In this document: positions 34,018-51,012 of the stretch, piece after piece
Position numbering within the stretch: the first letter of the stretch is position 1
Layout of the letters: each line of letters begins with the position of its first letter
Assembly: GCA_019638615.1 (NCBI GenBank)
Contig: JAHBTL010000009.1
Span: 157,800-221,799 of the forward strand
From: Chitinophagaceae bacterium
GTDB lineage: Bacteria > Bacteroidota > Bacteroidia > Chitinophagales > Chitinophagaceae
Length of the DNA: 64,000 nt
Direction: 5' to 3'
Program-made: the position numbers and the translations under genes
The notes under the pieces: model-generated
The model's input: the letters and a program-made list of their open reading frames with translations, nothing else
What the model was told of the DNA's origin: nothing
The model's database searches: none

Positions 34018-34072
34018 TTTGCTTTAGAAAGCAAAACAGCAGGCGCCGGGCGTTGCAACGCCGGCTGTTTTT
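34018..34072 (+). promoter_or_regulatory. Two stacked hairpins in the leader of the kinase-murQ genes (attenuator candidate)
   Basis: TTTGCTTT-AG-AAAGCAAA (34018-34035) is a perfect 8-bp hairpin. Just after it, CCGG(G)CGTTGCAACGCCGG (34046-34064) is a GC-rich palindrome followed by CTGTTTTTAT. This has the look of a terminator, but it sits upstream of the plus-strand gene at 34166 with no plus-strand gene before it, so it may regulate read-through into that gene. Confidence 0.4.
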
Positions 34073-34165
34073 ATAGGTGCAATTTCCTTATTTATCGGAA
34101 ACCAATTTTTAAGCGTAACTTCAACCTGATTATAATAATATTCAGCACTGCATTTTGGCGATAAG

Positions 34166-35152
34166 ATGAGTGATTTTTCTGTAATTGTTTCAACCATTTC
34201 TCCTGCTGATATAGCGAGATTCGTTCGTAAGACATATCCTGTAACGCAAAATACAACGTGCAGGCTTCTGAAAACAGGCATCAATCACACCTACCGCATT
34301 GATACGGAAAAAGAAAGCTATATTTTCAGAATATACTGTCACAACTGGCGCTCCAGGGAAGAAATATCCGAAGAGATTGATTTATTGCGGCATTTAAGCC
34401 AAAAAAACATTCCTGTTTCTTACCCGGTTGCAGACAATTCGGGAAGATATATACAGGAAATACAGGCTCCCGAAGGACTGCGTTTTGCAGTGCTGTTTTC
34501 TTTCGCGCCGGGGCAGAAAATACTTACTTACAGTAAAGAGATCCATTTTGAGGTAGGTAAATTAATGGCCCGGGTGCATGGTGTAACAAAGGGGCTGGAA
34601 CAAAAGCGCGTTACGTATACTGTGGATGTTTTATTAAATCAGTCATTTGAGTATTTCCGGCCGTTCCTTCCCGAAAATACAGAGGAAATGCAGTTTTTGA
34701 TGAAGACCAGGCCTTTGCTGGAAGAAGAGCTGTTAAATGCCGACCTGCATGGTTTACGGAACGGGATAGTGCATTTGGACATATGGTTTGACAACCTGAA
34801 TATTTCTGGTCATACCATCACCCTTTTTGATTTCGACCTTTGCGGAAACGGCTGGCTGTGCTTAGACGTGGCCTATTACGTATTGCAATTGTATAACACC
34901 GAAAAAGATGCTTCGGAGCGGGCCGGGAAAATACAGGCCTTCTACAGCGGATATGAAGCGATAGAGAAAATCAGCGATGAAGAAAGAAGGCTCATGCCTG
35001 TTGCAGGAATGTCTCTCTATTATTTTTATATGGGACTTTTATGCAGGCGGTTCAACGACTGGTCTGGTACATTTTTGAACGAGGTCTATCTGAAAAGATA
35101 TGTCAATACACTGATCCGGCCTTATTATGAAGCAACAAAAATGCTGTTTTGA
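34166..35152 (+). CDS. APH-fold small-molecule kinase (phosphotransferase family)
   Basis: 328 residues with the aminoglycoside phosphotransferase/choline kinase fold. N-lobe with GINHTYRI and YIFRIY, catalytic loop IVHLDIWFDN (D205, N210; the usual HGD reads HLD), and metal-binding DFD at 222-224 in LFDFDLCGNGWLCLDVAYYV. Family members phosphorylate homoserine, choline, methylthioribose, amino sugars or proteins. It lies 173 bp upstream of murQ on the same strand; since MurNAc/GlcNAc kinases of the AmgK type share this fold, an amino-sugar kinase is a reasonable guess, not shown by sequence alone. Confidence 0.8.
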   Translation: MSDFSVIVSTISPADIARFVRKTYPVTQNTTCRLLKTGINHTYRIDTEKESYIFRIYCHNWRSREEISEEIDLLRHLSQKNIPVSYPVADNSGRYIQEIQAPEGLRFAVLFSFAPGQKILTYSKEIHFEVGKLMARVHGVTKGLEQKRVTYTVDVLLNQSFEYFRPFLPENTEEMQFLMKTRPLLEEELLNADLHGLRNGIVHLDIWFDNLNISGHTITLFDFDLCGNGWLCLDVAYYVLQLYNTEKDASERAGKIQAFYSGYEAIEKISDEERRLMPVAGMSLYYFYMGLLCRRFNDWSGTFLNEVYLKRYVNTLIRPYYEATKMLF

Positions 35153-35325
35153 TATCCCGGCAGATTCTACAGGCAGGCATCATCACCCCAGCTATAAATC
35201 CGGCTTTTTCAGCCCATCGTGCGTAATATAAGTTCAAAAGCATATAAAATTTCAGGTTTGTCAAATTATGCATGTATATTTGATAAATAAATGCAAAAAA
35301 CAGCAAAAATTGCATTTTAATTGCT

Positions 35326-36147
35326 ATGCAAAAAATAACAGAACAAAAGTCGCCTTACAGACACCTGGATAAAATGAGCATAGAACAGATCACCGCCTGT
35401 ATAAACCAGGAGGACAAGGGCGTACCGCTTGCCATTGAGAAGGCTTTGCCGCAGATAAACAGACTGATTGAAAAGATAGTTGCCACATTAAAAAGCGAAG
35501 GGCGCCTGTTTTATGTAGGTGCCGGAAGCGGAGGGCGGCTTTCTGTACTCGATGTAATTGAGCTGCCTACCACTTACGGGATATCAAAGGGAGTGGTAAA
35601 TGTGATACTGGCAGGCGGAACAGACCATTTGGTGGAAGCTTTGGAGGAAAAGGAAGATGACACTACGGGTGCATGGGAGGAGATGAAAAAACAGAACATA
35701 AGCTCCAAAGATATGGTGGTAGGTATTTCCGCCAGCGGCACCACGCCATTTGTGCTGGCTGCGTTACAGCAATGCAAAGCCCATGGCATTGCTACCGGCT
35801 GCATCGTAAGTAACCCGGGGTCGCCTATTGCCGGTTATTCAGATTTCCCTGTAGAAGTGATTACGGGACCGGAATTTGTGAGTGGAAGCACAAGAATGAA
35901 ATGTGGCTCAGCTCAAAAAATGATCTTCGATATGATCAGCACAACGGCTATGATCCAGTTAGGCAGGGTTGAAGACAACAGTATGGTGAATGTAAAGCTT
36001 ATCAATAATAAAATTATTGACCGGGCCGTGAAAATGCTCATGGAGAAAACACAGATTTCGGATTACAACCAGGCTAAATCATTGCTGATTGAAAACGGGA
36101 GCGTAAAAGCAGCTTACGAGTTTGCAACTGCCCGGCGCAATATATGA
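35326..36147 (+). CDS. murQ: N-acetylmuramic acid 6-phosphate etherase
   Basis: 273 residues, a little shorter than the E. coli enzyme (298). SIS-domain fold with GRLFYVGAGSGGRLSVLDVIEL (in part), where E79 sits at the catalytic Glu position, the ISASGTTPFVLAAL sugar-phosphate loop, NPGSPI, and the family block FVSGSTRMKCGSAQKMIFDM. It cleaves the lactyl ether of MurNAc-6-phosphate to give GlcNAc-6-phosphate and D-lactate in the cytoplasm, the key step in recycling or using cell-wall muramic acid. The ELPTTYG motif replaces the common ECPPTYG. It is convergent (6 bp apart) with the DeoR-type regulator gene. Confidence 0.93.
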   Translation: MQKITEQKSPYRHLDKMSIEQITACINQEDKGVPLAIEKALPQINRLIEKIVATLKSEGRLFYVGAGSGGRLSVLDVIELPTTYGISKGVVNVILAGGTDHLVEALEEKEDDTTGAWEEMKKQNISSKDMVVGISASGTTPFVLAALQQCKAHGIATGCIVSNPGSPIAGYSDFPVEVITGPEFVSGSTRMKCGSAQKMIFDMISTTAMIQLGRVEDNSMVNVKLINNKIIDRAVKMLMEKTQISDYNQAKSLLIENGSVKAAYEFATARRNI

Positions 36148-36153
36148 TCTTAC

Positions 36154-36903
36154 TCAGACCACCGTCAGGTTATCGTTTCGGAACGCCACCAGCCTGTTGT
36201 CATCGGGCGGCAATTCCGTGATCAGGTAATTGACCTGGTTGAAATCACATATTTTGATTCGCTGCGTGGTATTCAGCTTTTCAGAAATGGTAAGAACCGC
36301 TACTTTTTTAGAGGAACGGATGATCGCTTTCTTTACCTGTACCATTTCCCAGTCAATGTCTGTAAGCCCGTCCTGTACCGAAAAGGCGTTAGCGCCCAGC
36401 AGGCACAGATCTACTTTGAATTCCGAGAGCTGATTCACAACGCTTGCACCCACATGCAGGTATGCGTTCTTATTCAGCTTGCCCCCGATCGTCATGATGT
36501 TAAGGTTGGTATGCTCCGATAGCGTAATGGCAATATGGGGGCTGATTGTGAGAAAAGTACAATTCAGGTAGGGGGGGATGGATTTTGCCAGCTCAAGCAA
36601 TGTGGTTCCTCCTTCCGTCAGGATCACCATTTCGTTTTTCAGGAGCCCAATGGCTTTTTCTGCAATTTTTTGCTTGGCATCCTGCGCATATACATCGTTT
36701 TTACCTCTGAACGGGGCCACGAGCGATTTGCTGATGGCCCCGCTATGCACCTTTAATATTTTTCCTTCCTGTGCAAGTTCTTTCAGGTCTCTGCGTACCG
36801 TATCGATGGATACATTTAAAAGCAGGCTCAAATCGTTAGAAAGGACTTTGTTATGCAGGTTTATCTCCCGCATGATCAGCTTGTGTCGTTCTTCTTTTAG
36901 CAT
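36154..36903 (-). CDS. DeoR/GlpR-family sugar-phosphate-responsive repressor
   Basis: 249 residues. N-terminal DeoR helix-turn-helix at 1-58 (LKEERHKLIMREINLHNKV, VSIDTVRRDLKELAQEGKI). C-terminal DeoRC sensor domain with ILTEGGTTLLELAKSI, LTISPHIAITL, MTIGGKLNKNAYLHVGASV and LGANAFSVQDGLTD, which binds a phosphorylated sugar. It is divergent from the second SusC gene across a 205-bp AT-rich region that contains an inverted repeat (36946-36988), a natural operator. Likely represses the susCD operon and perhaps itself. Confidence 0.92.
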   Translation of the reverse strand: MLKEERHKLIMREINLHNKVLSNDLSLLLNVSIDTVRRDLKELAQEGKILKVHSGAISKSLVAPFRGKNDVYAQDAKQKIAEKAIGLLKNEMVILTEGGTTLLELAKSIPPYLNCTFLTISPHIAITLSEHTNLNIMTIGGKLNKNAYLHVGASVVNQLSEFKVDLCLLGANAFSVQDGLTDIDWEMVQVKKAIIRSSKKVAVLTISEKLNTTQRIKICDFNQVNYLITELPPDDNRLVAFRNDNLTVV

Positions 36904-36945
36904 TTTTATCTGGAGTTTGATTGTGTGAACTTAATACTCACCTGA

Positions 36946-36988
36946 AATTATTTTTTAAGAAATTACCACAATTTCTTTTTTAATAATT
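36946..36988. promoter_or_regulatory. Inverted repeat between the DeoR gene and susC2, operator candidate
   Basis: AATTATT-tttt-AAGAAATT, 5-bp centre, AATTTCTT-tttt-AATAATT: both 15-base halves match in inverted order. It lies 43 bp upstream of the regulator ATG and 120 bp upstream of the susC2 ATG. AT-richness raises the chance of coincidence. Confidence 0.5.
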
Positions 36989-37108
36989 CTTTTTGCATTA
37001 TTTTAGCTTTAATAACAGCATAAAACAGAATTCAATAAACTCTCATAAATAATAAATTTTAAATATTTTAATCAATAATCCTCTTATTAATAACCAAAAC
37101 TAAAGCAA

Positions 37109-40100
37109 ATGAATGAAAATAACAGGCTTTTAGAAAAAAGGTCACCTTTCCGTTTTCTGTCTTTTTGCAGTTTTACAGTCTATTTTTTGCTTCTTTCCAT
37201 CTCTTGTGCTGCAAAAATGCAAAATACTGGCCATTACGCCGGTAAAAATTTGCTTAAAAACGCAAACTATGGTTTAAGGGGCAAGGTAGTGGAGTCAAAC
37301 GGGACGCCTGTTGCAGGCGCTACCATTACGGTGAAGTCAACCAATAGCTCAGCCATTGCCGATGATGAAGGAAACTTTGAAGTAGAAGTAAACGAAAATG
37401 ATTCGTTGATTGTTACTGCTGTGGGTTATATCTCACAAACAGTCCGGTTAGGAAAGCAAAAAGCGATCAACATTACGCTTGAACCCGACCAGGAAACCAG
37501 GAAAATGCAGGAAGTAGTGGTGGTGGGATATGGTACACAGAAGAGGGTTAACGTTACCGGGGCAATTTCCACCATGGGAGCCAAACAATTGTCTGTTGTG
37601 CCTGCCGGCAATACTGCCAATTTATTGGCCGGCCAGTTGCCGGGTTTAATTGCAGTACAACGAAGCAGTGAGCCGGGTAATGACCAGCCCGAGTTATACA
37701 TCAGGGGCTTTGGCAGCCCGCTGGTGGTGGTAGATGGTATAGTAGGCAGATCTTTCGCCCGTTTGGACCCGAATGAAATAGAAAGCATCACCATATTAAA
37801 AGATGCGGCTTCTACGGCGGTGTACGGTGTAAATGGAGGAAACGGTGTGATTCTCGTAACAACAAAAAAGGGAACCCGCAATAAACCGGAGTTGAATTAT
37901 ACATTTAATTATGGAGTACAGCATGTTACCGAATATCCCCGTTTTGTTAATTCGGCTGAATTTGCTGAATTAAAAAACGAAGCTTCTTATAACATTGGTG
38001 GGGCCGGAGTATACTCTGATGAAGAAATTCAAAAATTTAAAGACGGCAGCGACCCGTTAAATTATCCAAATTTTGATTATTATAATTATTTCGTAAAAGA
38101 CTATACACCGCAAAAGGAGCATAACCTTTCCATTAGAGGCGGAGGAGAAAACGTCAGGTATTTTTTTATGGTGAGCAAGTTTGACCAGGAAGCGATGTGG
38201 AAAGGAGGCAATCAAAACTATGGACGTTATAATTTCCGGTCGAATGTGGAAGCCAGTATAGGGAACAACCTTACCATCAACGTGGATCTGGGCGGCAGAA
38301 CGGAAGATCGCAACAATCTGGTACAGGATGCTTACCTGATGGCATCCTGGATGCAGTATCAATGGCCAATATCCAATCCTTTAACACCCGATGGCAAGAT
38401 CAACAATGCTAATTATGGTTTAAGCGCTTATCTGAATACCGACCTGACAGGTTATATTCAAAACAGGATCAATGCCTACCAGGCCAATGTAACGGTGAAT
38501 TATAAAATCCCTTTTGTCCCCGGCTTGAGCGCCAAAGTTACCGGAGCGCATGATATATATGTGGAAGACAGAAAGCACTGGATGAAAGAATATGGTTTGT
38601 ATACATGGGATCCTGCTGCAGAAACTTCTGTTAGAACCGGAGGAAGGGAATCGAATTTCCTGAATTTAAGCAATACAAAAATTACCAATACGCGGATACA
38701 GGCTTCATTGAATTACATTCGCCGGTTCGCCGAAAAGCACAATGTAACGGGGTTGCTGTTGTATGAAGAAATGGAAGACAGGACAACCTCATTGACCGGT
38801 CAGCGGATCGGATATGTGGTACCTATAGACCAGATATTTGCCGGACCGGCATTGAACCAAACCAACGGCGGTACCGCCAGCGACATGGGCAGAAGAAGTT
38901 ATGTTGGAAGAGCCACTTACGATTACCTGGGTAAATACCTGCTGGAATACAGCTTCCGTTACGACGGATCTCCCCTCTTTCCCGAAGCCGGGCGCTGGGG
39001 CTATTTCTCCGGCTATTCTGCAGGATGGAGAGTATCTGACGAAAGTTTTTTCAAAGACAATGTGAAAGTGCTGGATTACCTGAAGCTGCGTGCTTCCTAT
39101 GGAACAACCGGTTGGGATGGAATTCCTGCATTCCAGTACCTGGCTGGTTACAACTATCCCTCCGGAACTTATGTGTATGGCGGAACAACTGTGTCTCAGG
39201 GCTTCACAGATGCAGGTATTCCTAATCCTGCTGTTACCTGGCAGCAAATGAAAACTGCCAATATTGGGGCTGAGCTCGGATTCTGGAATCGCATGCTGGA
39301 ACTGGAAATAGATGTTTTTCAACGCAATCAGTCTGGCTTGTTTGGCAATCGTTCTACCCAGATACCCAGTACGTTCGGTGCATCGTTGCCGCAGGAAAAT
39401 ATTAATTCAGATATTGTAAAGGGTTTTGAAGTTGTAGTAAGACATACCCACCAGGTCAATAAGCTGCAATACAATGTTTCTGCCAATGTATCCTTCAGCA
39501 AACGGAAATGGAATCATTTTGAAACGCGTGAATTTACGTCAGATTATGACAAGTGGATGAACGATGTAAACGGGCGATATACGAACCGGGCTGTAGGCTT
39601 CCTTAGGGCGATCGGACAGTTCCAAAGCCAGGAAGAAATCAATAATTCCCCTATACAGGATGGCAATGGAAACAGAACATTATTACCGGGTGATATTAAG
39701 TTTGATGACTTTAATGGCGACGGCATTATTGATAACCGGGACATTCAGCCTACCGGTTTGGGTACAACTCCGGAAATTATGTATGGCCTCAATCTGAATG
39801 CTTCCTGGAAAAAATTTAATCTTACCATGAACTGGCAGGGAGCCGCCAACTTCCAGGTACACCTGCAGCATTTCCTGATCCAGCCGTTCGCCAACGATAT
39901 GAACACCTATGCCTACTGGCTTGACAGGTGGCGCCGGGCTGACCCCAAGGATCCTAATTCGGAATGGATACCCGGCAAGTATCCTGCTACGCGCAACGAC
40001 GGCACTCCCAATAATAACAGGGCTTCTACCTTCTGGCTCAAAAATGCAGCGTACTTCAGGTTAAAAGCATTAAATATTGGTTATACGATCGATCATCCCT

Positions 40101-40264
40101 GGTTGGGCAAAGCCGCTATAAAAGCGATCAACATTTTTGTCAGTGGGCAGAACCTCCTCACATTTACCGGACTTGAGTATATAGATCCTGAAACTCCTTC
40201 AGGAAGATTATCGGTATACCCTTTAATGAAAACCTACAATGCCGGTATTAATGTAACATTCTAA
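37109..40264 (+). CDS. SusC/RagA-type TonB-dependent transporter (no STN domain)
   Basis: 1051 residues. A long N-terminal region with a hydrophobic export segment (FTVYFLLLSISCAA) is followed directly by the carboxypeptidase-like domain at about 53-125 (LRGKVVESNGTPVAGATITV). The TonB box region has MQEVVVVGYGTQKRVNVTGA. The plug has STAVYGVNGGNGVILVTTKK and a 22-strand barrel follows, ending in TYNAGINVTF. Lacking STN, it should not signal to a FecR, which fits control by the adjacent DeoR regulator. First gene of the 37109-51012 operon. Confidence 0.96.
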   Translation: MNENNRLLEKRSPFRFLSFCSFTVYFLLLSISCAAKMQNTGHYAGKNLLKNANYGLRGKVVESNGTPVAGATITVKSTNSSAIADDEGNFEVEVNENDSLIVTAVGYISQTVRLGKQKAINITLEPDQETRKMQEVVVVGYGTQKRVNVTGAISTMGAKQLSVVPAGNTANLLAGQLPGLIAVQRSSEPGNDQPELYIRGFGSPLVVVDGIVGRSFARLDPNEIESITILKDAASTAVYGVNGGNGVILVTTKKGTRNKPELNYTFNYGVQHVTEYPRFVNSAEFAELKNEASYNIGGAGVYSDEEIQKFKDGSDPLNYPNFDYYNYFVKDYTPQKEHNLSIRGGGENVRYFFMVSKFDQEAMWKGGNQNYGRYNFRSNVEASIGNNLTINVDLGGRTEDRNNLVQDAYLMASWMQYQWPISNPLTPDGKINNANYGLSAYLNTDLTGYIQNRINAYQANVTVNYKIPFVPGLSAKVTGAHDIYVEDRKHWMKEYGLYTWDPAAETSVRTGGRESNFLNLSNTKITNTRIQASLNYIRRFAEKHNVTGLLLYEEMEDRTTSLTGQRIGYVVPIDQIFAGPALNQTNGGTASDMGRRSYVGRATYDYLGKYLLEYSFRYDGSPLFPEAGRWGYFSGYSAGWRVSDESFFKDNVKVLDYLKLRASYGTTGWDGIPAFQYLAGYNYPSGTYVYGGTTVSQGFTDAGIPNPAVTWQQMKTANIGAELGFWNRMLELEIDVFQRNQSGLFGNRSTQIPSTFGASLPQENINSDIVKGFEVVVRHTHQVNKLQYNVSANVSFSKRKWNHFETREFTSDYDKWMNDVNGRYTNRAVGFLRAIGQFQSQEEINNSPIQDGNGNRTLLPGDIKFDDFNGDGIIDNRDIQPTGLGTTPEIMYGLNLNASWKKFNLTMNWQGAANFQVHLQHFLIQPFANDMNTYAYWLDRWRRADPKDPNSEWIPGKYPATRNDGTPNNNRASTFWLKNAAYFRLKALNIGYTIDHPWLGKAAIKAINIFVSGQNLLTFTGLEYIDPETPSGRLSVYPLMKTYNAGINVTF

Positions 40265-40276
40265 AACAAACTGATT

Positions 40277-42046
40277 ATGCGATATAAAATCCTTTTAATT
40301 GTAATGATTATAGCTTTTTCGGGATGTCTCAAAAATGTGCTCGACAGAAAGCCTTTGAACAGGATCTCTGATGCGGATGTATGGTATTCTGCCACATTGG
40401 CCGAACTGTATCTTGTGCCGGTTTATGACGCTTTACCCATTGGGTTTGACCGTGGCGGATCTGTTCATGAATCAAATATGACGGATGAAGCTTCACAGCC
40501 CTATGCCGGGGTAACTGTAGTGAACAATTATGGTAATTTGGGACTTGCTTTAAACACAGGAGCATATACTCCTATCCGGAGGGTCAATTATTATCTCCAG
40601 ATGATCGGCACAGGCAGCCTGACCGCAGACCAGGTAAAACAATTAAGCGCCGAAGCAAGATTTTTAAGGGCGTACTTTTATTTTGACCTGGCAAAAAAAT
40701 ATGGTGGCATGCCCATCATCACGGAAGCTCAGAGCAAAGACGATGAGTTGGAAACCCTGCAGGTATCCCGCAACAAAGAAGATGAAGTGTATGGTTTTGT
40801 ATTATCTGAGCTGGATGCAGCGGTTGCCGACCTGCCGGAAAGCAGGGATGCTGCCAACCGCAACCGTGCGGTGAAAACAACCGCGCTTGCATTAAAGGCA
40901 AGAGCTGCATTGTATGCTGCATCCATTGCTAAATTTGGTGCTGTGCAGTTGAACGGGCTGGTGGGGATTCCCCAGGAAAAAGCTGCGTTTTACTATACCG
41001 AGGCATTCAATGCATCCAAAGCTGTGATTGAGAGCGATAAGTACCAGTTATATACAAAACAATACGACCCGCAAACGGCAACAGGTGATGCTTCAGCTAA
41101 TTTTACATCCATATTCACCGACAGGGATAATGAAGAGATCATTTTTCAAAAAAGCTACAGTAAGCCTGCCAAAATGCATTCTTACGACACCTATAACTAC
41201 CCGCAGAGTTTTAAGCCCGGCTGTTGCGGCAACGCGCAGGCGCCTACGCTCGAAATGGTAGAATCTTTTGAATTTGTGGACAATGTAAACGGTACCCTGA
41301 ACGTAGCCGGAAAGGAATTCAATACTCCTGATGAAGTGTTCGCTAAAAAAGACCCCCGTTTCGAAGGTACCATTATGCGGTCTGAAACGCCATTGCTGGG
41401 CAGAACCGTACAGATCTACCGTGGTATTTACGACCAGGGAGGTACGTTATATGAGGTAGCCAATACGCCCTTTCCTGCCGACCCCTCTATGGCACAGGTA
41501 GGTCGCGACGGTCCTTATACACTGGGTGATGTAGGCAAAACCGGGTTTTATGTAAAAAAATATCTCACTACTTCAGAAATAACCCCGGAAAGCCAGTCCT
41601 GGCAGAATTATATCGACTTCCGTTTGGCTGAAATGTATCTCACCCTGGCGGAAGCTGCTTTCGAAGGCAACCTGGATCAGGCTGCCGGGCTGAATGCCAT
41701 CAACGCGGTTAGAAAAAGAGCCGGTATGCCTGAGTTAACAGCAGTTGATTTTACGAGGGAAAGAATCAGGAACGAAAGAAAAGTAGAACTGGCTTATGAA
41801 GACAAACGTTTTTGGGATATAAGAAGATGGCGTATAGGGACCACGTTGTTCCAGAATACCAGTATACATGGATTGTGGCCATATCTTAAATATACAGGCT
41901 CGGGCTATAAGTGGACATATGTAAAGAAAAGCGGAGCACCGCTCGATAATGGCCAGGCGAGGGTATTCCTGGAAAGAGACTATTATAGTAATCTTTCAGG
42001 GTATATCGCTACAAATCCCAAAATTGAAAATAATCCAGGTTGGTAA
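40277..42046 (+). CDS. SusD/RagB-type outer-membrane lipoprotein
   Basis: 589 residues. Lipobox FSGC (Cys17). LSAEARFLRAYFYFDLAKKYGG (in part) and the C-terminal DFRLAEMYLTLAEAAFEG, INAVRKRAGMPELTAVDF and RIRNERKVELAYEDKRFWDI blocks are typical of RagB/SusD. It starts 12 bp after susC2. It is expected to form the lid of that transporter and bind its glycan or peptide-glycan ligand. Confidence 0.96.
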   Translation: MRYKILLIVMIIAFSGCLKNVLDRKPLNRISDADVWYSATLAELYLVPVYDALPIGFDRGGSVHESNMTDEASQPYAGVTVVNNYGNLGLALNTGAYTPIRRVNYYLQMIGTGSLTADQVKQLSAEARFLRAYFYFDLAKKYGGMPIITEAQSKDDELETLQVSRNKEDEVYGFVLSELDAAVADLPESRDAANRNRAVKTTALALKARAALYAASIAKFGAVQLNGLVGIPQEKAAFYYTEAFNASKAVIESDKYQLYTKQYDPQTATGDASANFTSIFTDRDNEEIIFQKSYSKPAKMHSYDTYNYPQSFKPGCCGNAQAPTLEMVESFEFVDNVNGTLNVAGKEFNTPDEVFAKKDPRFEGTIMRSETPLLGRTVQIYRGIYDQGGTLYEVANTPFPADPSMAQVGRDGPYTLGDVGKTGFYVKKYLTTSEITPESQSWQNYIDFRLAEMYLTLAEAAFEGNLDQAAGLNAINAVRKRAGMPELTAVDFTRERIRNERKVELAYEDKRFWDIRRWRIGTTLFQNTSIHGLWPYLKYTGSGYKWTYVKKSGAPLDNGQARVFLERDYYSNLSGYIATNPKIENNPGW

Positions 42047-42064
42047 CTATTAAAGAGATTTACA

Positions 42065-42739
42065 ATGAAAAATTTGTTCTATATATGTTGCGTGGTATTG
42101 TCATTGACCGGTTGCAAGGTAGATAACTACGAAGGACCTAATGCAGTTATTTCAGGTAAAATCATTGACAATGAAACAAAGGACCTAGTTCCCTCCGGTG
42201 GTTCTGTATCCGGTACTATTGTACGGTTTTATCAAAACAATGCTACCCAGCCTTTGAATTTTACAACTTTTCCGGACGGAACATTTACCAATAAAGCCTC
42301 TTTTACAGGAAGCTATACTTATACGGCAGAGGGGCCATTCACCTTGGTGAACAGTGCTCCTCAGAGCGTAACGGTTACGTCTCAAACGGAAGTTGATGTT
42401 CCTGTGGTTCCTAATATCCGGCTTTCCGCTCAGCAGACGCAAACTGGTGGGTCAACAGCTACTTATAAAGTTTCGTACGAAAAGCTGACGAACGATCAGG
42501 ATATGATAGAAATTGGTATTTCATGGGCAGACTATAAAAATCCTAACAGGATAGTATATGCCGGGGGAAAAAACCTGTTGGAAAATGTAGCAGGCCAGGG
42601 ACTGGTTAGCGGAGATGAGGATTTTGAGATAACGGGACTGGAGTCAGGAAAAATTTATTATATCAGGGCGTTTGCCCGCACCAACAATCCCGGCGGCTAT
42701 TATAACTATTCACAGCAGGTGGAACTGCATATTCCCTGA
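42065..42739 (+). CDS. DUF3823-type surface lipoprotein
   Basis: 224 residues. Lipobox LTGC (Cys17). Residues about 25-110 form a beta sandwich of the DUF3823 type (ISGKIIDNETKDLVPSGG, TIVRFYQN), and residues about 125-224 a fibronectin-III-like domain (ETGLESGKIYYIRAFARTN-like). Such proteins commonly follow susCD pairs and are thought to be surface glycan-binding proteins. 18 bp after susD2. A hairpin terminator candidate follows at 42776. Confidence 0.82.
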   Translation: MKNLFYICCVVLSLTGCKVDNYEGPNAVISGKIIDNETKDLVPSGGSVSGTIVRFYQNNATQPLNFTTFPDGTFTNKASFTGSYTYTAEGPFTLVNSAPQSVTVTSQTEVDVPVVPNIRLSAQQTQTGGSTATYKVSYEKLTNDQDMIEIGISWADYKNPNRIVYAGGKNLLENVAGQGLVSGDEDFEITGLESGKIYYIRAFARTNNPGGYYNYSQQVELHIP

Positions 42740-42775
42740 TCTGTTGGTGAAAAGGCTTATACGGGGTACAGCCAG

Positions 42776-42806
42776 ACCGGTTAAAAATGTTTTAACGACC
42801 GGTTTT
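42776..42806 (+). terminator. Terminator-like hairpin after the DUF3823 gene
   Basis: ACCGGTTAAAA (42776-42786) pairs with TTTTAAC-GA-CCGGT (42790-42803) with a two-base bulge, followed by TTTTAT. It may partially end the susCD transcript before the DegT gene, giving higher expression of the transporter. Confidence 0.5.
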
Positions 42807-42893
42807 ATGGATATAAGGTTTGTTTATACACTGTTTTTATCTAAGTTGTAGAACTAAATTCAGTAACTCACATTATAATTAATTTATTACAAA

Positions 42894-44243: not shown

Positions 44244-47207
44244 ATGATGATCCGTTATTTCTTATTCTTTTTTTGCAGCGTAATAATATACGCTTGCCAG
44301 CCGGCGCCTGTATCTCCTTTTAGCCATTCAGCTATTGAAGCGCTTGCTACTTTCGAGATAGCGGAGGGATTTAAAATTGAATTGATGGCAAGTGAACCAC
44401 TTGTTCGCGACCCTTGTGATATGATGATAGATGAATATGGGCGCCTGTATGTAGTAGAGATGTCTGGTGTTCCTTTGAATAAATCAAATGCAGGTAAGAT
44501 CGTACTGCTGTCAGATAGAGATGGTGATGGCAGGATGGATTCAAGTACTGTATTTGCCGATTCCCTGATCATGCCTTCGGGAATTATGCGTTGGAAAAAA
44601 GGAGTAATGGTTACCGACCCTCCAAACCTGTATTACCTGGAAGACACAGATCAGGATGGTATAGCTGATGTAAAAGAAATTATGCTCTCCGGCTTTGATA
44701 CTTCCAATCTGGAAGCGAATGTCAATAACCCCGAGTATGCATTGGATAACTGGATTTACATGGCGGCGCTTCCTATCCGTGGCAAAAGTAAGATCCATTT
44801 TGCAGGCGATACAGTTGGTGTAAATATCCTGGAAAGCTCATTAAGATTCCGGCCGGATACGAGGCAATTGGAACCCTTATCCGGGCAGTCTCAGTTCGGT
44901 CATACTTTTGACGAATGGGGCCATCATCTGATGGTAAGCAGTGGAAACCATATATATCAGTCGGTAATGCCATTCCGTTATTTACAACGAAACCCCGATA
45001 TGGTCATACCCAGGTCAACAGAAACGCTGGCTGATCATATAGATGTTTTTCCGATCACTAAAAATCCCGAATATCAAATGCTCACGGATGTAGGCGTGTT
45101 TACTTCCGCCTGTGGTCTGACCGCTTATCTCGGGGGAGCATTTCCGGAAGAATACAATAAGAATGTCACTTTTGTTTGTGAGCCGGTAAGCAATATCGTA
45201 CATGCAGATTATCATATACCCAATGGAGTGACTTCCATAGCAAAGCGGATGCAGGAACGAAAGGAATTCCTGGCATCAACAGATCCTTATTCAAGGCTGG
45301 TTAACCTGTATATTGGTCCGGATGGTTCATTATACGTGCTGGATTTTTACAGGCAGATCATCGAAGGCCCTGAGTATATGGCAAAGGAAGTACTGGATAC
45401 GGTGGATCTCTATAACGGGGTAGATAAAGGAAGGATTTACCGTATAAGCGCTAAAAATGCGGGCCCGCCGGAATGGACCAAAGGGCTGCAGTTGGGGGAT
45501 GCTTCGGATGAACAACTGGTAGAAAAATTAGCAGATAAAAATATATGGTGGAGAATGAATGCACAAAGGCTCCTGGTAGACCGCCAGGGCAACGGGGCGA
45601 TACCTGCCCTGAAAGAAATGGCAAAGAATGGTCGTTCTTCTCCGGGTAAACTTCATGCTTTATGGACCCTGGAAGGAAAACAGCAGCTTACTTCAGATAT
45701 TATTGAGTTTGCCTTAAATGATTCCTCTGCAGGCATAAGGGAAAATGCTGTCAGGCTGGCTGAGATGCATTTACATGCCGACAGTGGTTTGGTTGCTTCT
45801 TTGTTAAAGCTCCAAAACGATGCTGCCCCGGGAGTGAGATTTCAATTGCTTTTAACCTTAGGATATATTTCTATGCCGGAAGTGAATAAAGTGAGGGAGC
45901 AATTGCTTTTTAAAGACATCAATGATCAATGGATGCAGATAGCGGCTTTAAGCGCTTCTTCCTCTCAATCGGCCGGGTTACTGAATGCTGTTCTGTCCGT
46001 ATTTGATCCGGCAAATAAGGCACATGCATCATTGATACAACGTTTGAGCGCTATACTGGGAACGAGTCAGCCCGTAGGAGTGATCGAGGAACTTATTAAA
46101 AAAGCTACTGTTGTTTCAGGGAAGCAGGATGAGCAATGGAAGGCGCCTGTGCTGGAAGGGTTGGCGCAGGGTCTTAAAAGCAGGAAGTCCCTGCCTGCCG
46201 GGTTAGTACGGAACCGCTCTCTGCTCATTCAAAGTTGCCTGGAAAATCCTTCTACTCCAATCAGGAAATCCTGTTTGCAGATATTACAGGTCATGGGGCT
46301 TCCTGAAGCATCACAAATATTACCTGCTGCACAAAAGGCAATTCAGCTGGCAGCAAATGTTCAGTTACCTGAAGAGCAGCGATCGTGCGCAATAGATTTA
46401 ATTGGCTGGCTGGATCCCGTGCGCCATGCTTCTTTTTTGAAAAGCCTGGTGAATCCACGGGAACCATTCCAGGTTCAATCGTCCGCTCTCAATGCGTTAA
46501 AGCAGATACCAGGCATTGATATTTGCGTTTATTTTCTTGCAAAATGGACTTCTTTATCTCCCGGTATGCAAAGTGCCGTAATAAATGCATGCATGATGAC
46601 AGATGAGAGAATCCGGTTGTTGCTGGATGCGGTTGAATCCGGTAAAATGAATATAAGCGATATCAATTGGGGACAAAGCGTTCGTCTCAGATCCCTGGGT
46701 AACCTGGCGCTTCGTGAACGGGCAAGAGCACTTTTTTCCGCAAAAAATAACGTGTCAAAAAGTATAGTACAGGAATATCAATTGGCCCTGGAAACAACAG
46801 GAGATGCCGAAAAAGGCAGGACCCTGTTTCAGGTACATTGCGCTGTATGCCATCAGGTAGGAGGGAAGCTGGGCAGGCCGTATGGTCCTGACCTGGGAAC
46901 AGTGCATGCGTGGCCGCCGGCAGATATTATGACCAATATACTGGATCCCAACCGGTCTATTGCCAATGGATATAATTCCTGGGAAGTTGTTTTGAATACC
47001 GGTGAGTCTTTTCAGGGGATCATTTCGGCAGAAACTCCTACAGCCATTACAATGACTGATGCAAATGGACAAGCAAAAGATATTGCAAGACAGGATATAA
47101 AAACATTACAGTCGTTGGGAATTTCTGCCATGCCAGAGAGATGGGAAGAAAAAATCAGTAAGTCGCAGATGGCCGATCTGCTCGCCTTTCTTAAAAAGGG
47201 AGGATGA
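44244..47207 (+). CDS. PVC-type cytochrome c lipoprotein (membrane-bound dehydrogenase type)
   Basis: 987 residues; a second in-frame ATG follows at once. Lipobox IYAC (Cys18). Beta-propeller at about 35-400 with FKIELMASEPLVRDPCDMMI, D-x-D-x-D-G loops (DRDGDGRMD, DTDQDGIAD) and GPDGSLYVLDFYRQIIEGPE. HEAT-like helices at about 410-840. Class I cytochrome c with CAVCH at 866-870 and a C-terminal PVC-type heme module (GRPYGPDLGTVHAW; a YNSWEVVLNTGESFQGII segment). Unlike the protein at 10889 it lacks the SGNH-like N-domain. It is probably a surface or periplasmic dehydrogenase passing electrons via its heme; it starts right after the DegT gene stop. Confidence 0.88.
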   Translation: MMIRYFLFFFCSVIIYACQPAPVSPFSHSAIEALATFEIAEGFKIELMASEPLVRDPCDMMIDEYGRLYVVEMSGVPLNKSNAGKIVLLSDRDGDGRMDSSTVFADSLIMPSGIMRWKKGVMVTDPPNLYYLEDTDQDGIADVKEIMLSGFDTSNLEANVNNPEYALDNWIYMAALPIRGKSKIHFAGDTVGVNILESSLRFRPDTRQLEPLSGQSQFGHTFDEWGHHLMVSSGNHIYQSVMPFRYLQRNPDMVIPRSTETLADHIDVFPITKNPEYQMLTDVGVFTSACGLTAYLGGAFPEEYNKNVTFVCEPVSNIVHADYHIPNGVTSIAKRMQERKEFLASTDPYSRLVNLYIGPDGSLYVLDFYRQIIEGPEYMAKEVLDTVDLYNGVDKGRIYRISAKNAGPPEWTKGLQLGDASDEQLVEKLADKNIWWRMNAQRLLVDRQGNGAIPALKEMAKNGRSSPGKLHALWTLEGKQQLTSDIIEFALNDSSAGIRENAVRLAEMHLHADSGLVASLLKLQNDAAPGVRFQLLLTLGYISMPEVNKVREQLLFKDINDQWMQIAALSASSSQSAGLLNAVLSVFDPANKAHASLIQRLSAILGTSQPVGVIEELIKKATVVSGKQDEQWKAPVLEGLAQGLKSRKSLPAGLVRNRSLLIQSCLENPSTPIRKSCLQILQVMGLPEASQILPAAQKAIQLAANVQLPEEQRSCAIDLIGWLDPVRHASFLKSLVNPREPFQVQSSALNALKQIPGIDICVYFLAKWTSLSPGMQSAVINACMMTDERIRLLLDAVESGKMNISDINWGQSVRLRSLGNLALRERARALFSAKNNVSKSIVQEYQLALETTGDAEKGRTLFQVHCAVCHQVGGKLGRPYGPDLGTVHAWPPADIMTNILDPNRSIANGYNSWEVVLNTGESFQGIISAETPTAITMTDANGQAKDIARQDIKTLQSLGISAMPERWEEKISKSQMADLLAFLKKGG

Positions 47208-47245
47208 TACTTTGCCTTTGCATAAAATCTATAAAGTTCAAGAAC

Positions 47246-49093
47246 ATGAAAAGAATTGTATCACATTTTAAAGCTCATCCTGCTAAGCCTGTAATGTTAT
47301 TCTTTTTTTGCTGGTGCATCGTGCTGTTCTTTCCGGGCAATACTTTATTTGCTCAGCCAAACGGAATGGTATCTAAAGTGATGGAAGCAGGAGTTGCCAG
47401 TGTAGACATTACTCCTGACATTCCTGTTCGTATGGCCGGATATGCTTCCCGGAAAAGCAGGGGAGCGGATAGTATATTACACAGCTTGTCGGCTAAAGCG
47501 CTTGCATTAGGAAGTGACGGGCAGCACCCTTCGATATTGATTACAGTGGACTTGCTGTATATAACCTGGAGAATTACCCAACAGGTTTCAGACTTTCTTT
47601 CACAAGAAATGGGAATTGATCCGGCCCAGATCGTAATATGTGCTTCGCATACACATGGAGGCCCTGAACTATTTGCCAGCAATGTGCTGCAATACCGGGG
47701 TGATTACTTTTCCGATTCGCTGCTTGCTTTAAACCAGTTGATCCAGATTGCTGAATATACGGAAGCGCTTACGCAGAAATTGAAAAATGTTGCGGTCGCC
47801 GCATTAAAAAACAGGCGCCCTTCATTTGTTTCATGGGGGCAGGGGCAGGCATTATTTGCCGCTAACCGGAGGACAGAAAACGGGCCGGTGGATGTGGCAT
47901 TGCCCGTATTAAAAGTTACCGATACCGATGGTTCTGTAAGAGCTGTTTTTTTGAATTACGCCTGCCATGGAACCACGCTTGAGGGAAATACCTATAAAAT
48001 TCATGGAGACTGGATTGGAGAAGCACAAAAAATGATTGAGGCCCGCCATGCGGGTATGACCGCATTGATCGCGCTCGGATGTGCCGGAGATGCGAACCCC
48101 TCACCAAGAGGCAAGCTTGAGCATATTACGTTGCACGGTAAGGAAATTGCTGACAATGTAGACAAGTTGCTTACTGCCTCATTGGTTCCGCTGGCTGCTC
48201 CTCCGCTTGGTAAAATGAAATGGATCAAATTACCTTTCTCAAAATTGCCAACAGTGCCCGAATTGATCGGGTTGTCGAAAGATAAAACGGTGAAAGGTTA
48301 TAATGCCCGGCGTACACTGGAACGCGTTCTGAATGGGGAAGTTATTCCCGCGTCAGTGGATTATCCTGTGCAGGTATGGAGCTTCGATGATAAAATGGCA
48401 ATGGTAAACCTTGCAGGGGAAGTTGTAGTTGACTATTCTATACGGTTAAAGGATATGTATGGCGCTGAAAACCTTTGGGTCAACGGCTATTCAAATGATG
48501 TTCCCTGTTATATTGCTTCCCGCCGGGTAATAGGAGAGGGAGGATACGAAGGTGAAAGCAGCATGTACTGGTATAATAAACTGGCGCCATTGGCTCCGGA
48601 GGCTGAGGATATGATTGTAGGTGCTGTTAATGAATTAATGCCTGCAGTGTTCAGGGAGAAACGGCCGGTTGTCAATAACCAGGAGCTTGTTCAAAAAGGA
48701 GAGGATAATACTTACTATCTGTCTGCCTGGCAGGCCGGCACTATGGGGAAGAACATAAAGTATATGCCGGAATGGAAGGCGTTTGGTTGGTTTGATGTAG
48801 GGGATCAGGCAATGTGGAAAGTAGATATTATTGAACCAGGCTTGTACGATGTTTATTTTGAATGGTCGGTTTCGGATAAGGAAGCAGGCAAAAGCTTTTT
48901 GTTACAGGCTGGTAATAAAAAATTAAAAGGAAAAATAAGTCCGACCGGGTCGTGGTTTACCTATAAAACGAAAAAAGCAGGAACCATCCGTTTGTCTGCA
49001 GGAATACAGGAAATAGTTTTAAAATCCGGGTTACCCGCGGAAAAAGGACCTTTATTTGATTTGCGTGCGCTTACATTGGTGCCTGTAAAATAA
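47246..49093 (+). CDS. Neutral ceramidase-like amidohydrolase with C-terminal beta-sandwich
   Basis: 615 residues from the ATG at 47246, which gives a proper signal peptide (hydrophobic MLFFFCWCIVLFFPGNTLFA); an ATG at 47204 overlaps the upstream stop (ATGA) and is the alternative. Residues about 45-475 match the neutral/alkaline ceramidase N-domain: ASVDITPDIPVRMAGYASR, SHTHGGP (H135, H137), NYACHGTTLEG, IHGDWIGEA, GCAGDANPSPRG, and NGYSNDVPCYIASRRVIGEG. Residues about 485-615 form a carbohydrate-binding-like sandwich. Ceramidase-fold enzymes are zinc amidases; in glycan loci they may cleave N-acyl or amide groups. Its paralogue lies at 49669. Confidence 0.87.
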   Translation: MKRIVSHFKAHPAKPVMLFFFCWCIVLFFPGNTLFAQPNGMVSKVMEAGVASVDITPDIPVRMAGYASRKSRGADSILHSLSAKALALGSDGQHPSILITVDLLYITWRITQQVSDFLSQEMGIDPAQIVICASHTHGGPELFASNVLQYRGDYFSDSLLALNQLIQIAEYTEALTQKLKNVAVAALKNRRPSFVSWGQGQALFAANRRTENGPVDVALPVLKVTDTDGSVRAVFLNYACHGTTLEGNTYKIHGDWIGEAQKMIEARHAGMTALIALGCAGDANPSPRGKLEHITLHGKEIADNVDKLLTASLVPLAAPPLGKMKWIKLPFSKLPTVPELIGLSKDKTVKGYNARRTLERVLNGEVIPASVDYPVQVWSFDDKMAMVNLAGEVVVDYSIRLKDMYGAENLWVNGYSNDVPCYIASRRVIGEGGYEGESSMYWYNKLAPLAPEAEDMIVGAVNELMPAVFREKRPVVNNQELVQKGEDNTYYLSAWQAGTMGKNIKYMPEWKAFGWFDVGDQAMWKVDIIEPGLYDVYFEWSVSDKEAGKSFLLQAGNKKLKGKISPTGSWFTYKTKKAGTIRLSAGIQEIVLKSGLPAEKGPLFDLRALTLVPVK

Positions 49094-49301
49094 AATGAAT
49101 ATTGCCCTGGCAGCCACACTCGCTCGGGGGCTGACCAAAAAAGTCGTCATTGCGAGTTAACAATTAGGGGACTTAATCATTGAGCCGTGACAAGTTGTAT
49201 TCGTATTTTGCAGTTTTTGTATACGTCCTGGTTCGGAGAAAATATATCAGGATTCCGTTGCTGAGTTCACAGTAGTACCAAAGCTTAATCGATCCCGCTT
49301 T

Positions 49302-49496
49302 TTGCGGGACCCGAAATCGGCCGTAGTCCCAGCCTGCCGGCTGGCAGGGATTTCGGGCGGCTTTTTGGTTACTTTTTTCCGCAAAAAAGTAACAGAAAAA
49401 AGCAAAAGGTCTGTAATTGAAAGGAAGGTAGAATTTATACATCAACAAATTGAATTTTATGACCAATTGATAAACATCAAACTGAATAATATGTGA
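49302..49496 (+). other. Short conserved reading frame inside element C
   Basis: A TTG-started frame of 64 codons containing GGFLVTFFRKKVTEKSK... then ERKVEFIHQQIEFYDQLINI and ending at TGA (49494-49496). The homologous frame in element B (minus strand) differs by in-frame, largely conservative changes and has no internal stop. It could be a genuine tiny protein or the relic of a gene; the first 20 codons run through a GC-rich palindrome and are probably not coding. Confidence 0.35.
49370..49395. repeat. Perfect palindrome of the inner module (element C copy)
   Basis: GTTACTTTTTT-ccgc-AAAAAAGTAAC: an 11-bp perfect stem with a four-base loop. The same palindrome occurs in element B near 22387-22412. 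An adjacent CCTGCCGGCTGGCAGG palindrome within CCCGAAATC...GATTTCGGG makes a second large hairpin. Confidence 0.8.
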
Positions 49497-49668
49497 TTGG
49501 CATCCTGACCAAAGGTTGGGAGAAGCAATCTCAAATACTAAAACCGTTATCGCTCAATGAGATTGCTTCGGTCGTTCCTAGAATACGTTCAACGACCTTT
49601 TGGGTCAGTCCCCGACAATTTTAAATGCACCCGTAGCCACAGGCTGTTAAGACAATTAAATTTTTACA

Positions 49669-51012
49669 ATGAAAAAATATACCAGTCTTTTTTTTCTGCT
49701 CTTTGTATTATCGGTAATGCACATTCAGGCATCTGCACAGTCGCTGAAAGCAGGCATTGGAAGAAAAGTCATTACACCTACAGATCCTGCATGGCTCAAT
49801 GGCTACGCTTCACCCAAAAGGTTTAGCCCCGCCGAAGGCAAAGACCACGATCTGTGGGCCAAAGCCATCGTATTGGAGGATGCAGGAAAAAAACGTGTTG
49901 TAATTGTTACGACCGATGTGCTGGGATTGTCGCATGAGATATCGGAAGACGTTGGCCGGAAGGTAATGGAGAAATATGGTATACCCAGGTCGCAGGTATT
50001 GCTCAATTCTTCGCATACGCATTCAGGCCCTATGGTATGGCCCTCTGCCGGCATGTTTGATTATGATACTAAAAATATGATTGTTGTAGCCGAATATGCG
50101 CAAAAGTTGACCAATGATATTGTAGAAGCTGTTGGCAGCGCTATTGCAGTAATGCATCCCGTAAAGCTGGCGAGTGGTAACGGCAACGCAACGTTTGGCA
50201 TTAACAGGCGCAGCCCCGAAATTAAAATACGTCCTGTTGATCATGATGTGCCGGTGCTTACCATCAGCGATCTGCAGGGTAAGCTGGAAGCTGTTTTGTT
50301 TGGATACGCGTGTCACAATACTACGCTTGGCGGCGATTATATGAAGATCAACGGAGATTACGCCGGTTATGCCCAATTAGAGATGGAAGCAAGTTATCCG
50401 GGAATTACGGCGTTGTTTTTCCAGGGTTGTGCCGGCGATATAAATCCTGAACCCAGGGGCACGGTGGAACTTGCTGAGCAGCACGGAAAAACATTGTCTG
50501 CTGCAGTGCAAAAAGTGATCAATAATAGCATGACACCTGTAGATGGTTTGATCAGGGCGAATTTGATAGAAGTGCCTCTTGAGTTCCCGCCATTGGACGT
50601 GCAGCAATACCAACGCGAGATCCTGAGTGAAGATCAGTATCTCCAGCGCAGGGCTAAGTTAATGTTAAGCGCTTATAATAAAAGATGGGATGTTACAACC
50701 TATAAATATCCGATACAGGCGATCAGGTTTGGAAAGAGCCTGTCTATACTCGCAATGGCAGGAGAAACAGTGGTTGATTATTCGTTATGGGCAAAAAAGC
50801 AATACAGTAAAGAAAATCTTTTTGTGGCCGGCTATAGCAATGAAGTGATGTGTTATATACCTACCAAACGTATTATCGGAGAAGGCGGGTATGAACCTAA
50901 TTCAAGCATGATCTATTATGTAATGCCCGGCCCGTTTTCGGAAAATGTGGAAGAAAAGATATTAAAAGGCATTCAGGCTGTAATGAAAAACGTGGGCATA
51001 AAGCCCGAATAG
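49669..51012 (+). CDS. Neutral ceramidase-like amidohydrolase (single domain)
   Basis: 447 residues. Signal peptide MKKYTSLFFLLFVLSVMHIQ then ASAQ. The mature enzyme shows KAGIGRKVITPTDPAWLNGY, SSHTHSGP (H116, H118), GYACHNTTLGGDYMKINGDY, FFQGCAGDINPEPRG and VAGYSNEVMCYIPTKRIIGE, the same zinc-amidase set as the gene at 47246, but without a C-terminal binding module. It has probably arisen by duplication; element C now separates the two copies, so this gene may need its own promoter. Likely periplasmic; the substrate is unknown and need not be ceramide. Confidence 0.88.
   Translation: MKKYTSLFFLLFVLSVMHIQASAQSLKAGIGRKVITPTDPAWLNGYASPKRFSPAEGKDHDLWAKAIVLEDAGKKRVVIVTTDVLGLSHEISEDVGRKVMEKYGIPRSQVLLNSSHTHSGPMVWPSAGMFDYDTKNMIVVAEYAQKLTNDIVEAVGSAIAVMHPVKLASGNGNATFGINRRSPEIKIRPVDHDVPVLTISDLQGKLEAVLFGYACHNTTLGGDYMKINGDYAGYAQLEMEASYPGITALFFQGCAGDINPEPRGTVELAEQHGKTLSAAVQKVINNSMTPVDGLIRANLIEVPLEFPPLDVQQYQREILSEDQYLQRRAKLMLSAYNKRWDVTTYKYPIQAIRFGKSLSILAMAGETVVDYSLWAKKQYSKENLFVAGYSNEVMCYIPTKRIIGEGGYEPNSSMIYYVMPGPFSENVEEKILKGIQAVMKNVGIKPE

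What the first reader, a model, noticed from the sequence alone, without database searches (positions are those of the whole stretch)
34166..51012. Candidate undescribed amino-glycan utilisation system combining murQ, susCD, Tat-aminotransferase, PVC cytochrome and ceramidase-like amidases
A SusCD importer under a sugar-phosphate repressor is linked to an outside oxidising heme protein, an exported PLP aminotransferase and two zinc amidases, and to cytosolic APH-type kinase and MurQ functions. No classical glycoside hydrolase is present. One model: amidases deacylate, the heme enzyme oxidises and the aminotransferase exchanges amino and keto groups on a sugar or cyclitol outside the cell before import; kinase and MurQ process the muramate-like product. 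This gene set is not a known pathway to me.
Basis: inference. Interest (0 to 1): 0.78.

Follow-up and report, generated by a model that had tools for sequence, protein, structure and literature searches.

The report
Amino-sugar locus with exported aminotransferase
A Bacteroidota genome carries a sugar-uptake gene cluster in which an aminotransferase with an export signal sits beside ceramidase-like amidases; this pairing recurs in related bacteria and may mark an undescribed way of breaking down amino-sugar-type molecules.

Summary
The genes are there as described. Homologues show that the core is a pair, Tat-DegT aminotransferase + ceramidase-fold amidase: a ceramidase-like gene lies in 11 of 15 close DegT loci and 8 of 15 distant ones, against 0 of 20 arbitrary stretches. 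Two other lineages (Parapedobacter L027; L166) add SusCD, a MurQ-like enzyme and a NagP-like transporter, on a scaffold that in L092 carries GH20/GH89-type hexosaminidases. So the locus looks like an amino-sugar PUL. The PVC protein is a second module paired with ceramidases; its propeller resembles PQQ sugar dehydrogenases and one published relative hydrolyses lactose. Heme-bearing PVC proteins join DegT and ceramidase in only 2 of 30 loci. The APH kinase has no support (0 of 53 DegT or MurQ loci). Against two relatives the window holds two extra blocks, so it is a mosaic. Corrections: this 'MurQ' is of a clade below the MurQ equivalog cut-off (8 of 8 tested) that 5 of 5 housekeeping copies pass, so MurNAc is not secured; the 'ceramidases' keep the metal site but have Asn at the Ser354 position. 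New variant of a known kind; substrate and direction of transamination are unproven.

The parts
34166..35152 (+). APH-type phosphotransferase (closest solved: amicoumacin kinase 6sui, homoserine kinase 2ppq)
   Evidence: PF01636 78.9 bits; PDB phmmer; absent from the 53 DegT or MurQ loci: membership in the system unsupported
35326..36147 (+). MurQ-like SIS protein of the clade called MurQ2 here; Glu79 and Glu107 kept
   Evidence: NF003915 317.6 (cut-off 168) but TIGR00274 260.5 (cut-off 302); tree; clade-specific changes
36154..36903 (-). DeoR-family repressor, divergent from susC
   Evidence: PF00455/PF08220; 54-71% identical copies in 7 of 18 MurQ2 loci
37109..40264 (+). SusC/RagA TonB-linked outer-membrane protein
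   Evidence: TIGR04056 832.6 bits; 50% identical SusC in L101
40277..42046 (+). SusD-family lipoprotein
   Evidence: PF07980 137.7 bits
42065..42739 (+). 224-aa lipoprotein-like protein, perhaps a surface accessory (inference from position)
   Evidence: no Pfam or NCBIfam hit
42894..44243 (+). Tat-type DegT/DnrJ/EryC1 aminotransferase (core)
   Evidence: PF01041 293.8 bits; twin-arginine in 31 of 35 homologue rows and PLP lysine motif in 35 of 35; closest solved AHBA synthase 1b9h
44244..47207 (+). PVC-type protein: DUF7133 propeller + HEAT repeats + cytochrome c (CxxCH at residue 866)
47204..49093 (+). CerA: ceramidase-fold protein with C-terminal CBM6-like stretch
   Evidence: PF04734 43.9 bits; CBM_6 22.7, below its cut-off 28.9; metal-site residues kept
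49669..51012 (+). CerB: ceramidase-fold protein, next to DegT in the two nearest relatives
34004..43001 (.). block without counterpart in relatives L022 and L036 (APH, MurQ, DeoR, SusCD, lipoprotein, start of DegT); limits are where blastn alignments end
44246..49734 (.). second block without counterpart in L022 and L036 (PVC, CerA, most of the 575-bp gap)
23054..33901 (-). neighbouring PUL: sigma, FecR, SusC, SusD, GH29-like, GH141-like; the DegT-CerB pair adjoins it in L022 (no GH29-like) and L036 too

Best explanation
It is a polysaccharide-utilisation-type locus for an N-acylated amino-sugar (or close amino-sugar-like) compound. SusCD imports the compound. Beyond the cytoplasmic membrane a metal-dependent, ceramidase-fold amidase (CerA/CerB) removes or opens an N-acyl group. 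A PLP enzyme exported folded through Tat (DegT) exchanges amino and keto groups on the freed, non-nucleotide sugar. The PVC protein is an accessory that oxidises or cleaves the glycan through its dehydrogenase-like propeller, with electrons going to its cytochrome c domain. The freed sugar enters the cytosol and, once phosphorylated, joins GlcNAc-6-phosphate metabolism through the MurQ-like enzyme and NagA/NagB. Shown: the genes, the recurring DegT-ceramidase linkage, folds and conserved residues. Inferred: export itself, substrate, order of steps, direction of transamination, kinase and inner-membrane transporter.
For: Tat-DegT + ceramidase-like gene: 11 of 15 close loci, 8 of 15 distant, 0 of 20 stretches at round-number coordinates (Fisher p 3e-6 for the close set); in these 19 loci both genes are on the same strand and in 17 they are 1-2 genes apart. 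DegT + MurQ-like + ceramidase-like + SusCD + NagP-like transporter in two other lineages: Parapedobacter L027 and L166, which also has a NagK-like kinase. The order DeoR<, SusC, SusD, BT3987-N, X, MurQ, (GH20), CerLong, NagP is shared by L092 (X = NAGLU) and L027 (X = DegT). MurQ2 loci: NagP-like 11, GH20 10, NagK-like 7, DeoR 7 of 18. A second Tat-DegT locus of the same genome (L021) has a CerA 67% identical and NagB-like and inositol-dehydrogenase-like genes. In this genome 7 of 8 PF04734 genes (6 of the 8 over the cut-off) lie within 7 kb of one of 22 TIGR02604 genes (the 7-kb limit was set after seeing the distances, 1.7-6.1 kb). Metal and catalytic residues invariant in 31 of 31. PVC propeller resembles PQQ sugar dehydrogenases. 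NagA is in the genome. Tat-exported PLP transaminases are known (PtaA, PvdN; PMC6206403 passages).
Against: MurQ is beside DegT in 2 of 15 close loci and 0 of 15 distant ones. PVC-family genes are in 2 and 7 of 15, and of the 7 only L019 shows CxxCH; L013, L014, L018, L168 lack it, L017 and L021 are cut by the stretch end; the PVC relative in L101 lacks it too. 4 of 15 close DegT loci have no ceramidase-like gene in the DNA held (L023, L024, L029, L030). The window blocks are separable. MurQ2 fails the MurQ equivalog cut-off. Pfam and NCBIfam found no NagP-like transporter and no BadF-type kinase among the ten proteins of the interval. No substrate or expression data. The 20 controls come from three genomes of one genus; the distant set is not 15 independent cases.
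Confidence: 0.48

Rival explanations
1. Mosaic without one pathway: separate modules (APH-MurQ2; DeoR-SusCD; DegT-CerB attached to the fucosidase-type neighbour PUL; PVC-CerA) happen to lie together in this lineage.
For: Two relatives have DegT-CerB next to the sigma/FecR/SusCD/GH141-like genes and lack both extra blocks; PVC-CerA stands as a pair without DegT in the stretches L114, L117, L118 (in L114's contig a DegT lies about 20 kb further on); MurQ and DeoR converge and a 575-bp gap precedes CerB.
Against: DegT, MurQ-like, ceramidase-like and SusCD come together in L027 and L166 in a different order; DegT-PVC-CerA is tightly packed here (gaps 0 and -4).
Confidence: 0.3
2. Aminocyclitol catabolism (inosamine- or aminoglycoside-like compounds): DegT removes or installs the amino group on a free cyclitol outside the cytoplasm; Gfo/Idh and a cytosolic DegT finish the job.
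For: Nearest solved relatives of DegT are AHBA synthase and glutamine--scyllo-inositol transaminase; the DegT2 of L031, without a signal, is closest to 2-deoxy-scyllo-inosose aminotransferase (4e-71), and a Gfo/Idh gene precedes DegT2 in L028, L030, L031; L021 has an inositol-2-dehydrogenase-like gene, far below the model's cut-off.
Against: ArnB-type and perosamine enzymes score nearly as well for the window DegT; NagP, NagK, NagB and MurQ links favour hexosamines.
Confidence: 0.12
3. Ordinary MurNAc/peptidoglycan salvage PUL: the ceramidase-like enzymes cut the lactyl-peptide amide and MurQ acts on MurNAc-6-P.
For: MurQ family and both Glu kept; L166 has transporter, kinase and MurQ, as Tannerella murTKQ does (PMC5790795 passages); an M55 D-aminopeptidase in L013/L014.
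Against: The MurQ of the other clade in this genome sits elsewhere beside a NagK-like gene (L108) and passes TIGR00274; 8 of 8 MurQ2 tested do not; MurQ2 loci carry GH20 in 10 of 18; no role for DegT.
Confidence: 0.07
4. Sphingolipid or lipid A degradation, with true ceramidases.
Against: The Ser354 position is Asn in 29 of 31 and never Ser; NF041649 scores 31.1 against 1200 for CerB; the CerB match ends at 2zws residue 487 of a 630-residue chain; neighbours are sugar genes.
Confidence: 0.03

Closest known systems
Bacteroidota amino-sugar PULs (SusCD with GH20/NAGLU, NagP-like, NagK-like, DeoR, MurQ-like), e.g. L092 and L101 here
   Same: same regulator family, SusCD, MurQ-like and ceramidase-like relatives; same gene order around MurQ in L092 and L027
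   Different: the window interval has no GH20, NAGLU, NagP or NagK; it has Tat-DegT, PVC cytochrome and APH instead
Tannerella forsythia murTKQ (MurNAc uptake, BadF-type kinase, etherase; PMC5790795, passages seen)
   Same: MurQ family; L166 has a transporter-kinase-MurQ set
   Different: MurT is a sodium symporter, NagP-like is MFS; the window MurQ is of a clade below the MurQ equivalog cut-off; the operon described there is murT, murK, murQ only
Periplasmic PLP enzymes PtaA and PvdN (PMC6206403, passages seen)
   Same: PLP enzyme exported folded by Tat
   Different: they tailor pyoverdine; here DegT family, in a PUL, with ceramidase-like partners
Neutral ceramidase (2zws, 4wgk)
   Same: fold, metal ligands, catalytic Arg and Tyr
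   Different: Asn at the Ser354 position, shorter chain in CerB, sugar-gene context
Lac161_ORF7 beta-galactosidase (TIGR02604 + HEAT_2 + cytochrome c; PMC5342196, section 15 read)
   Same: same three-domain architecture as the PVC protein
   Different: from a cosmid assigned to Verrucomicrobia; sequence not compared here; activity of the window protein unknown
AHBA synthase / scyllo-inosose aminotransferases (1b9h, 7b0d, 2c7t)
   Same: DegT family and catalytic lysine; among the nearest solved sequences
   Different: biosynthetic enzymes (recalled); here with a Tat signal in an uptake locus

Membership tests
Polysaccharide utilisation locus (SusCD-based) | adjacent susC/susD pair with local regulator | tested here: met
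   TIGR04056 832.6, PF07980 137.7, DeoR divergent
Polysaccharide utilisation locus (SusCD-based) | glycan-cleaving enzyme in the same operon | tested here: inconclusive
   no GH or PL family hit in the interval; a protein of the PVC architecture hydrolyses lactose
MurQ (MurNAc-6-P etherase) | MurQ subfamily model over cut-off | tested here: met
   NF003915 317.6 vs 168
MurQ (MurNAc-6-P etherase) | TIGR00274 equivalog cut-off 302 | tested here: not met
   window 260.5; L027 261.6; L166 257.6; five other MurQ2 251.8-270.8; 5 of 5 copies of the other clade 310.8-324.7
MurQ (MurNAc-6-P etherase) | two catalytic Glu | tested here: met
   Glu in 31 of 31 at both columns; that these are the catalytic pair is recalled
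Neutral ceramidase | metal ligands and catalytic His/Arg/Tyr | tested here: met
   H116, H118, R180, H216, E366, Y396, Y408 invariant in 31 of 31; mapped by eye on the print; His196, Arg257, Tyr579, Tyr591 from PMC6952831, the metal ligands recalled
Neutral ceramidase | active-site Ser (human Ser354) | tested here: not met
   Asn 29, Asp 1, Val 1 of 31
Neutral ceramidase | NCBIfam neutral ceramidase equivalog | tested here: not met
   CerB 31.1 vs cut-off 1200; CerA no hit
DegT/DnrJ/EryC1 aminotransferase | family model and PLP lysine | tested here: met
   PF01041 293.8; lysine motif in 35 of 35 homologue rows
Tat-exported PLP enzyme | twin-arginine signal and a Tat system in the genome | tested here: met
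   twin-Arg in the window protein and 31 of 35 homologue rows; TatC
Tat-exported PLP enzyme | export and periplasmic activity | not testable with these tools
   needs an experiment
PQQ-dependent sugar dehydrogenase (AA12/sGDH) | propeller fold | tested here: met
PQQ-dependent sugar dehydrogenase (AA12/sGDH) | bound PQQ and catalytic base | not testable with these tools
   residue-level structural alignment not available
murTKQ-type MurNAc system | BadF-type MurNAc kinase with the etherase | tested here: not met
   the window has APH and no BadF hit in the interval; NagK-like is present in L166

The most novel reading that the evidence does not exclude
Tat-DegT plus ceramidase-fold amidase is an undescribed extracytoplasmic pathway that removes an N-acyl group and then moves the amino group by transamination on a free amino sugar, such as a 2,3-diamino sugar or an aminocyclitol. 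The PUL-linked MurQ2 clade is a new lyase or epimerase specificity on a 3-substituted GlcNAc-6-phosphate other than MurNAc-6-P.
Probability: 0.28. Interest if true: 0.78.

Novelty: new variant of a known kind. Interest (0 to 1): 0.55.

Why it matters
Sugar aminotransferases of the DegT family are thought of as cytosolic biosynthetic enzymes (recalled). A conserved lineage with Tat signals, tied to a hydrolase inside sugar-uptake loci, would be amino-group chemistry done outside the cytoplasm for catabolism. It would give a function to proteins annotated as 'ceramidase' and 'PVC-type heme-binding' in Bacteroidota, and would warn against reading every MurQ hit as MurNAc recycling. The pairing makes it testable with two purified proteins.

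Tried and rejected
The strict trio test (DegT + ceramidase + PVC protein) mostly fails: 2 of 15 close and 4 of 15 distant loci, and with a CxxCH motif shown only the 2 close ones, L035 and L036. This check came late; it made me call the PVC protein an accessory and lower the main confidence from 0.50 to 0.48 and raise the mosaic from 0.28 to 0.30. APH as MurNAc kinase was rejected as unsupported: its 8 nearest kin loci hold none of DegT, ceramidase, MurQ or PVC genes, and 7 neighbours scanned in 3 of those 8 loci were GH18, bestrophin, LytTR regulator, sigma-70, photolyase, transpeptidase and MTHFR. True ceramidase function was rejected on Ser354 and the equivalog score. At first I read Ser354 to Asn as loss of the nucleophile; the passage in PMC6952831 says Ser354 sits at the pocket base and steadies Arg257, so I dropped the claim of inactivity. 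Literature: ten searches of an open-licence library listed no paper that I recognised as describing exported DegT enzymes or PF04734 proteins in PULs; for only 15 of 342 hits were listed. PDB sequence search gave only weak hits for CerA. Foldseek on the whole PVC model was led by helical-repeat proteins, so I relied. Rows left out of the counts: L012 (same gene as L036), L102 (no MurQ ORF found), the window itself; L034 (53%) was counted with the distant set. L017/L018 overlap on one contig, L013/L014 are one genus, L019/L020 (and L016) share a genome, so the distant set is not 15 independent cases. For the MurQ tree, 5 of 14 loci L053-L066 gave a recognised ORF; L053 and L106 are the same gene, so the 10-row clade has 9 distinct genes; the root is a drawing midpoint and the L166 row is long, its place unsure.


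Full report
Observation. The ten genes of 34166-51012 are intact and belong to the families named. The assembly has 7.18 Mb; a genome of the same genus (G123) has a contig of the same length and gene order as the Chitinophagaceae MAG record of L036, so I place the window in Chitinophagaceae (inference). SusC to CerA is tightly packed (gaps 12, 18, 154, 0, -4); CerB follows after 575 bp; APH-MurQ converges on DeoR.

Linkage. A scan of genome contigs with DegT gave 15 loci; a family sample gave 7 of 147 genomes at 1e-60 and a class sample 7 of 395 at 1e-100, the window's own genome included in both, so the lineage is rare. In 15 close loci (63% identity or more) a ceramidase-like gene is present in 11, NagP-like in 5, MurQ-like in 2, PVC-family in 2; in 15 distant Tat-DegT loci the counts are 8, 1, 0 and 7, with amidohydrolase-2 genes in 7 and NagB-like in 3; in 20 arbitrary stretches of three genomes of the genus all these are 0. 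The PVC-family genes of the distant loci are shorter (560-756 aa, two of them cut by the stretch end) and only L019 shows CxxCH. Ceramidase-like and TIGR02604 genes are tied to each other in this genome: 7 of 8 PF04734 genes within 7 kb of one of 22 TIGR02604 genes (limit set after seeing the distances), and PVC-CerA pairs with a heme motif stand in L114, L117 and L118.

Amino-sugar scaffold. L027 (Parapedobacter) reads DeoR<, SusC, SusD, BT3987-N protein, DegT, MurQ, CerLong, NagP-like; L092 reads DeoR<, SusC, SusD, BT3987-N, NAGLU, MurQ, GH20, CerLong, NagP-like, NagK-like. L166 reads sigma, FecR, SusC, SusD, MurQ, DegT, CerLong, NagK-like, NagP-like (models). So in L027 DegT takes the slot that NAGLU holds in L092. 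The NagP-like proteins of L027, L101 and L168 pass the gluP subfamily cut-off but not the NagP equivalog cut-off; that of L166 passes neither. A second Tat-DegT locus of the same genome (L021) carries CerA, a shorter PVC-family gene, a NagB-like gene and an inositol-dehydrogenase-like gene, the last two below their equivalog cut-offs. NagA is present.

MurQ2. A MurQ search found 108 of 147 genomes positive at 1e-40. Thirty-one sequences split into a 10-row clade, which I call housekeeping because its members sit beside a NagK-like gene in 5 of 5 loci seen, and a 21-row clade that holds the window, L027 and L166 copies (support 100/100). All 5 housekeeping copies tested pass TIGR00274 (310.8-324.7 against 302); 8 of 8 MurQ2 proteins tested do not (251.8-270.8). 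The differences include GAG-TS-GR to GAG-SG-GR (Gly in 21 of 21) and, around Glu79, Ser78 to Ile (18 of 21), Cys80 to Leu (21 of 21) and Pro82 to Thr (19 of 21), each fixed the other way in 10 of 10. I infer altered specificity; both Glu stay in 31 of 31. Not every MurQ2 is in a PUL: L089-L091 sit beside topoisomerase-type genes.

Mosaic. Against L022 the window is collinear over 27012-34003, 43002-44245 and 49735-52204; between them 34004-43001 and 44246-49734 correspond to 414 and 145 bp, and L036 also lacks both blocks. Two relatives lacking the blocks favour gain in this lineage, though loss is possible.

Verdict. One pathway around amino sugars is the better reading (0.48), a loose mosaic the main rival (0.30). 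Exported PLP transaminases have precedent in PtaA and PvdN (PMC6206403 passages); I found no report of one in a sugar-uptake locus in the ten searches of the open library.

Noticed in passing
window 10889-14053 (+): A second TIGR02604 protein (1054 aa) lies in the window; the genome has 22 TIGR02604 genes over the cut-off.
   Followed up: partly
window 49155-49505 and 22556-22631: Intergenic stretches in the gap before CerB match L022:15006-15125, which also matches another place in the window: perhaps dispersed repeats at the edge of an extra block.
   Followed up: no
L091 (G000:C41), L089, L090: A MurQ2 copy sits beside genes of topoisomerase type in three genomes of the genus (families scanned in L090 only), without a PUL.
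   Followed up: partly
L028, L030, L031: A second DegT without a signal follows a Gfo/Idh oxidoreductase, downstream of Tat-DegT; the L031 copy is closest to 2-deoxy-scyllo-inosose aminotransferase.
   Followed up: partly
L013, L014: Tat-DegT and two ceramidase-like genes lie with an FGGY kinase, an M55 D-aminopeptidase, two amidohydrolase-2 genes and a heme-less PVC-family gene.
   Followed up: no
L013, L014, L016, L019, L021, L033, L169, L171: Two amidohydrolase-2 genes of distinct type recur as a pair near Tat-DegT.
   Followed up: no
L101, L115, L116: Heme-less PVC-family proteins of about 700 aa are each followed by a 114-125-aa protein with a twin-arginine start; these belong to one small family.
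   Followed up: no
window 23054-26954 (-): GH141-like beta-helix and GH29-like genes belong to a PUL that adjoins DegT-CerB also in L022 and L036; L022 lacks the GH29-like gene.
   Followed up: partly
window 53790-59540 (+): A 1916-aa ORF downstream, with a short similarity to an ORF in L024; not annotated here.
   Followed up: no
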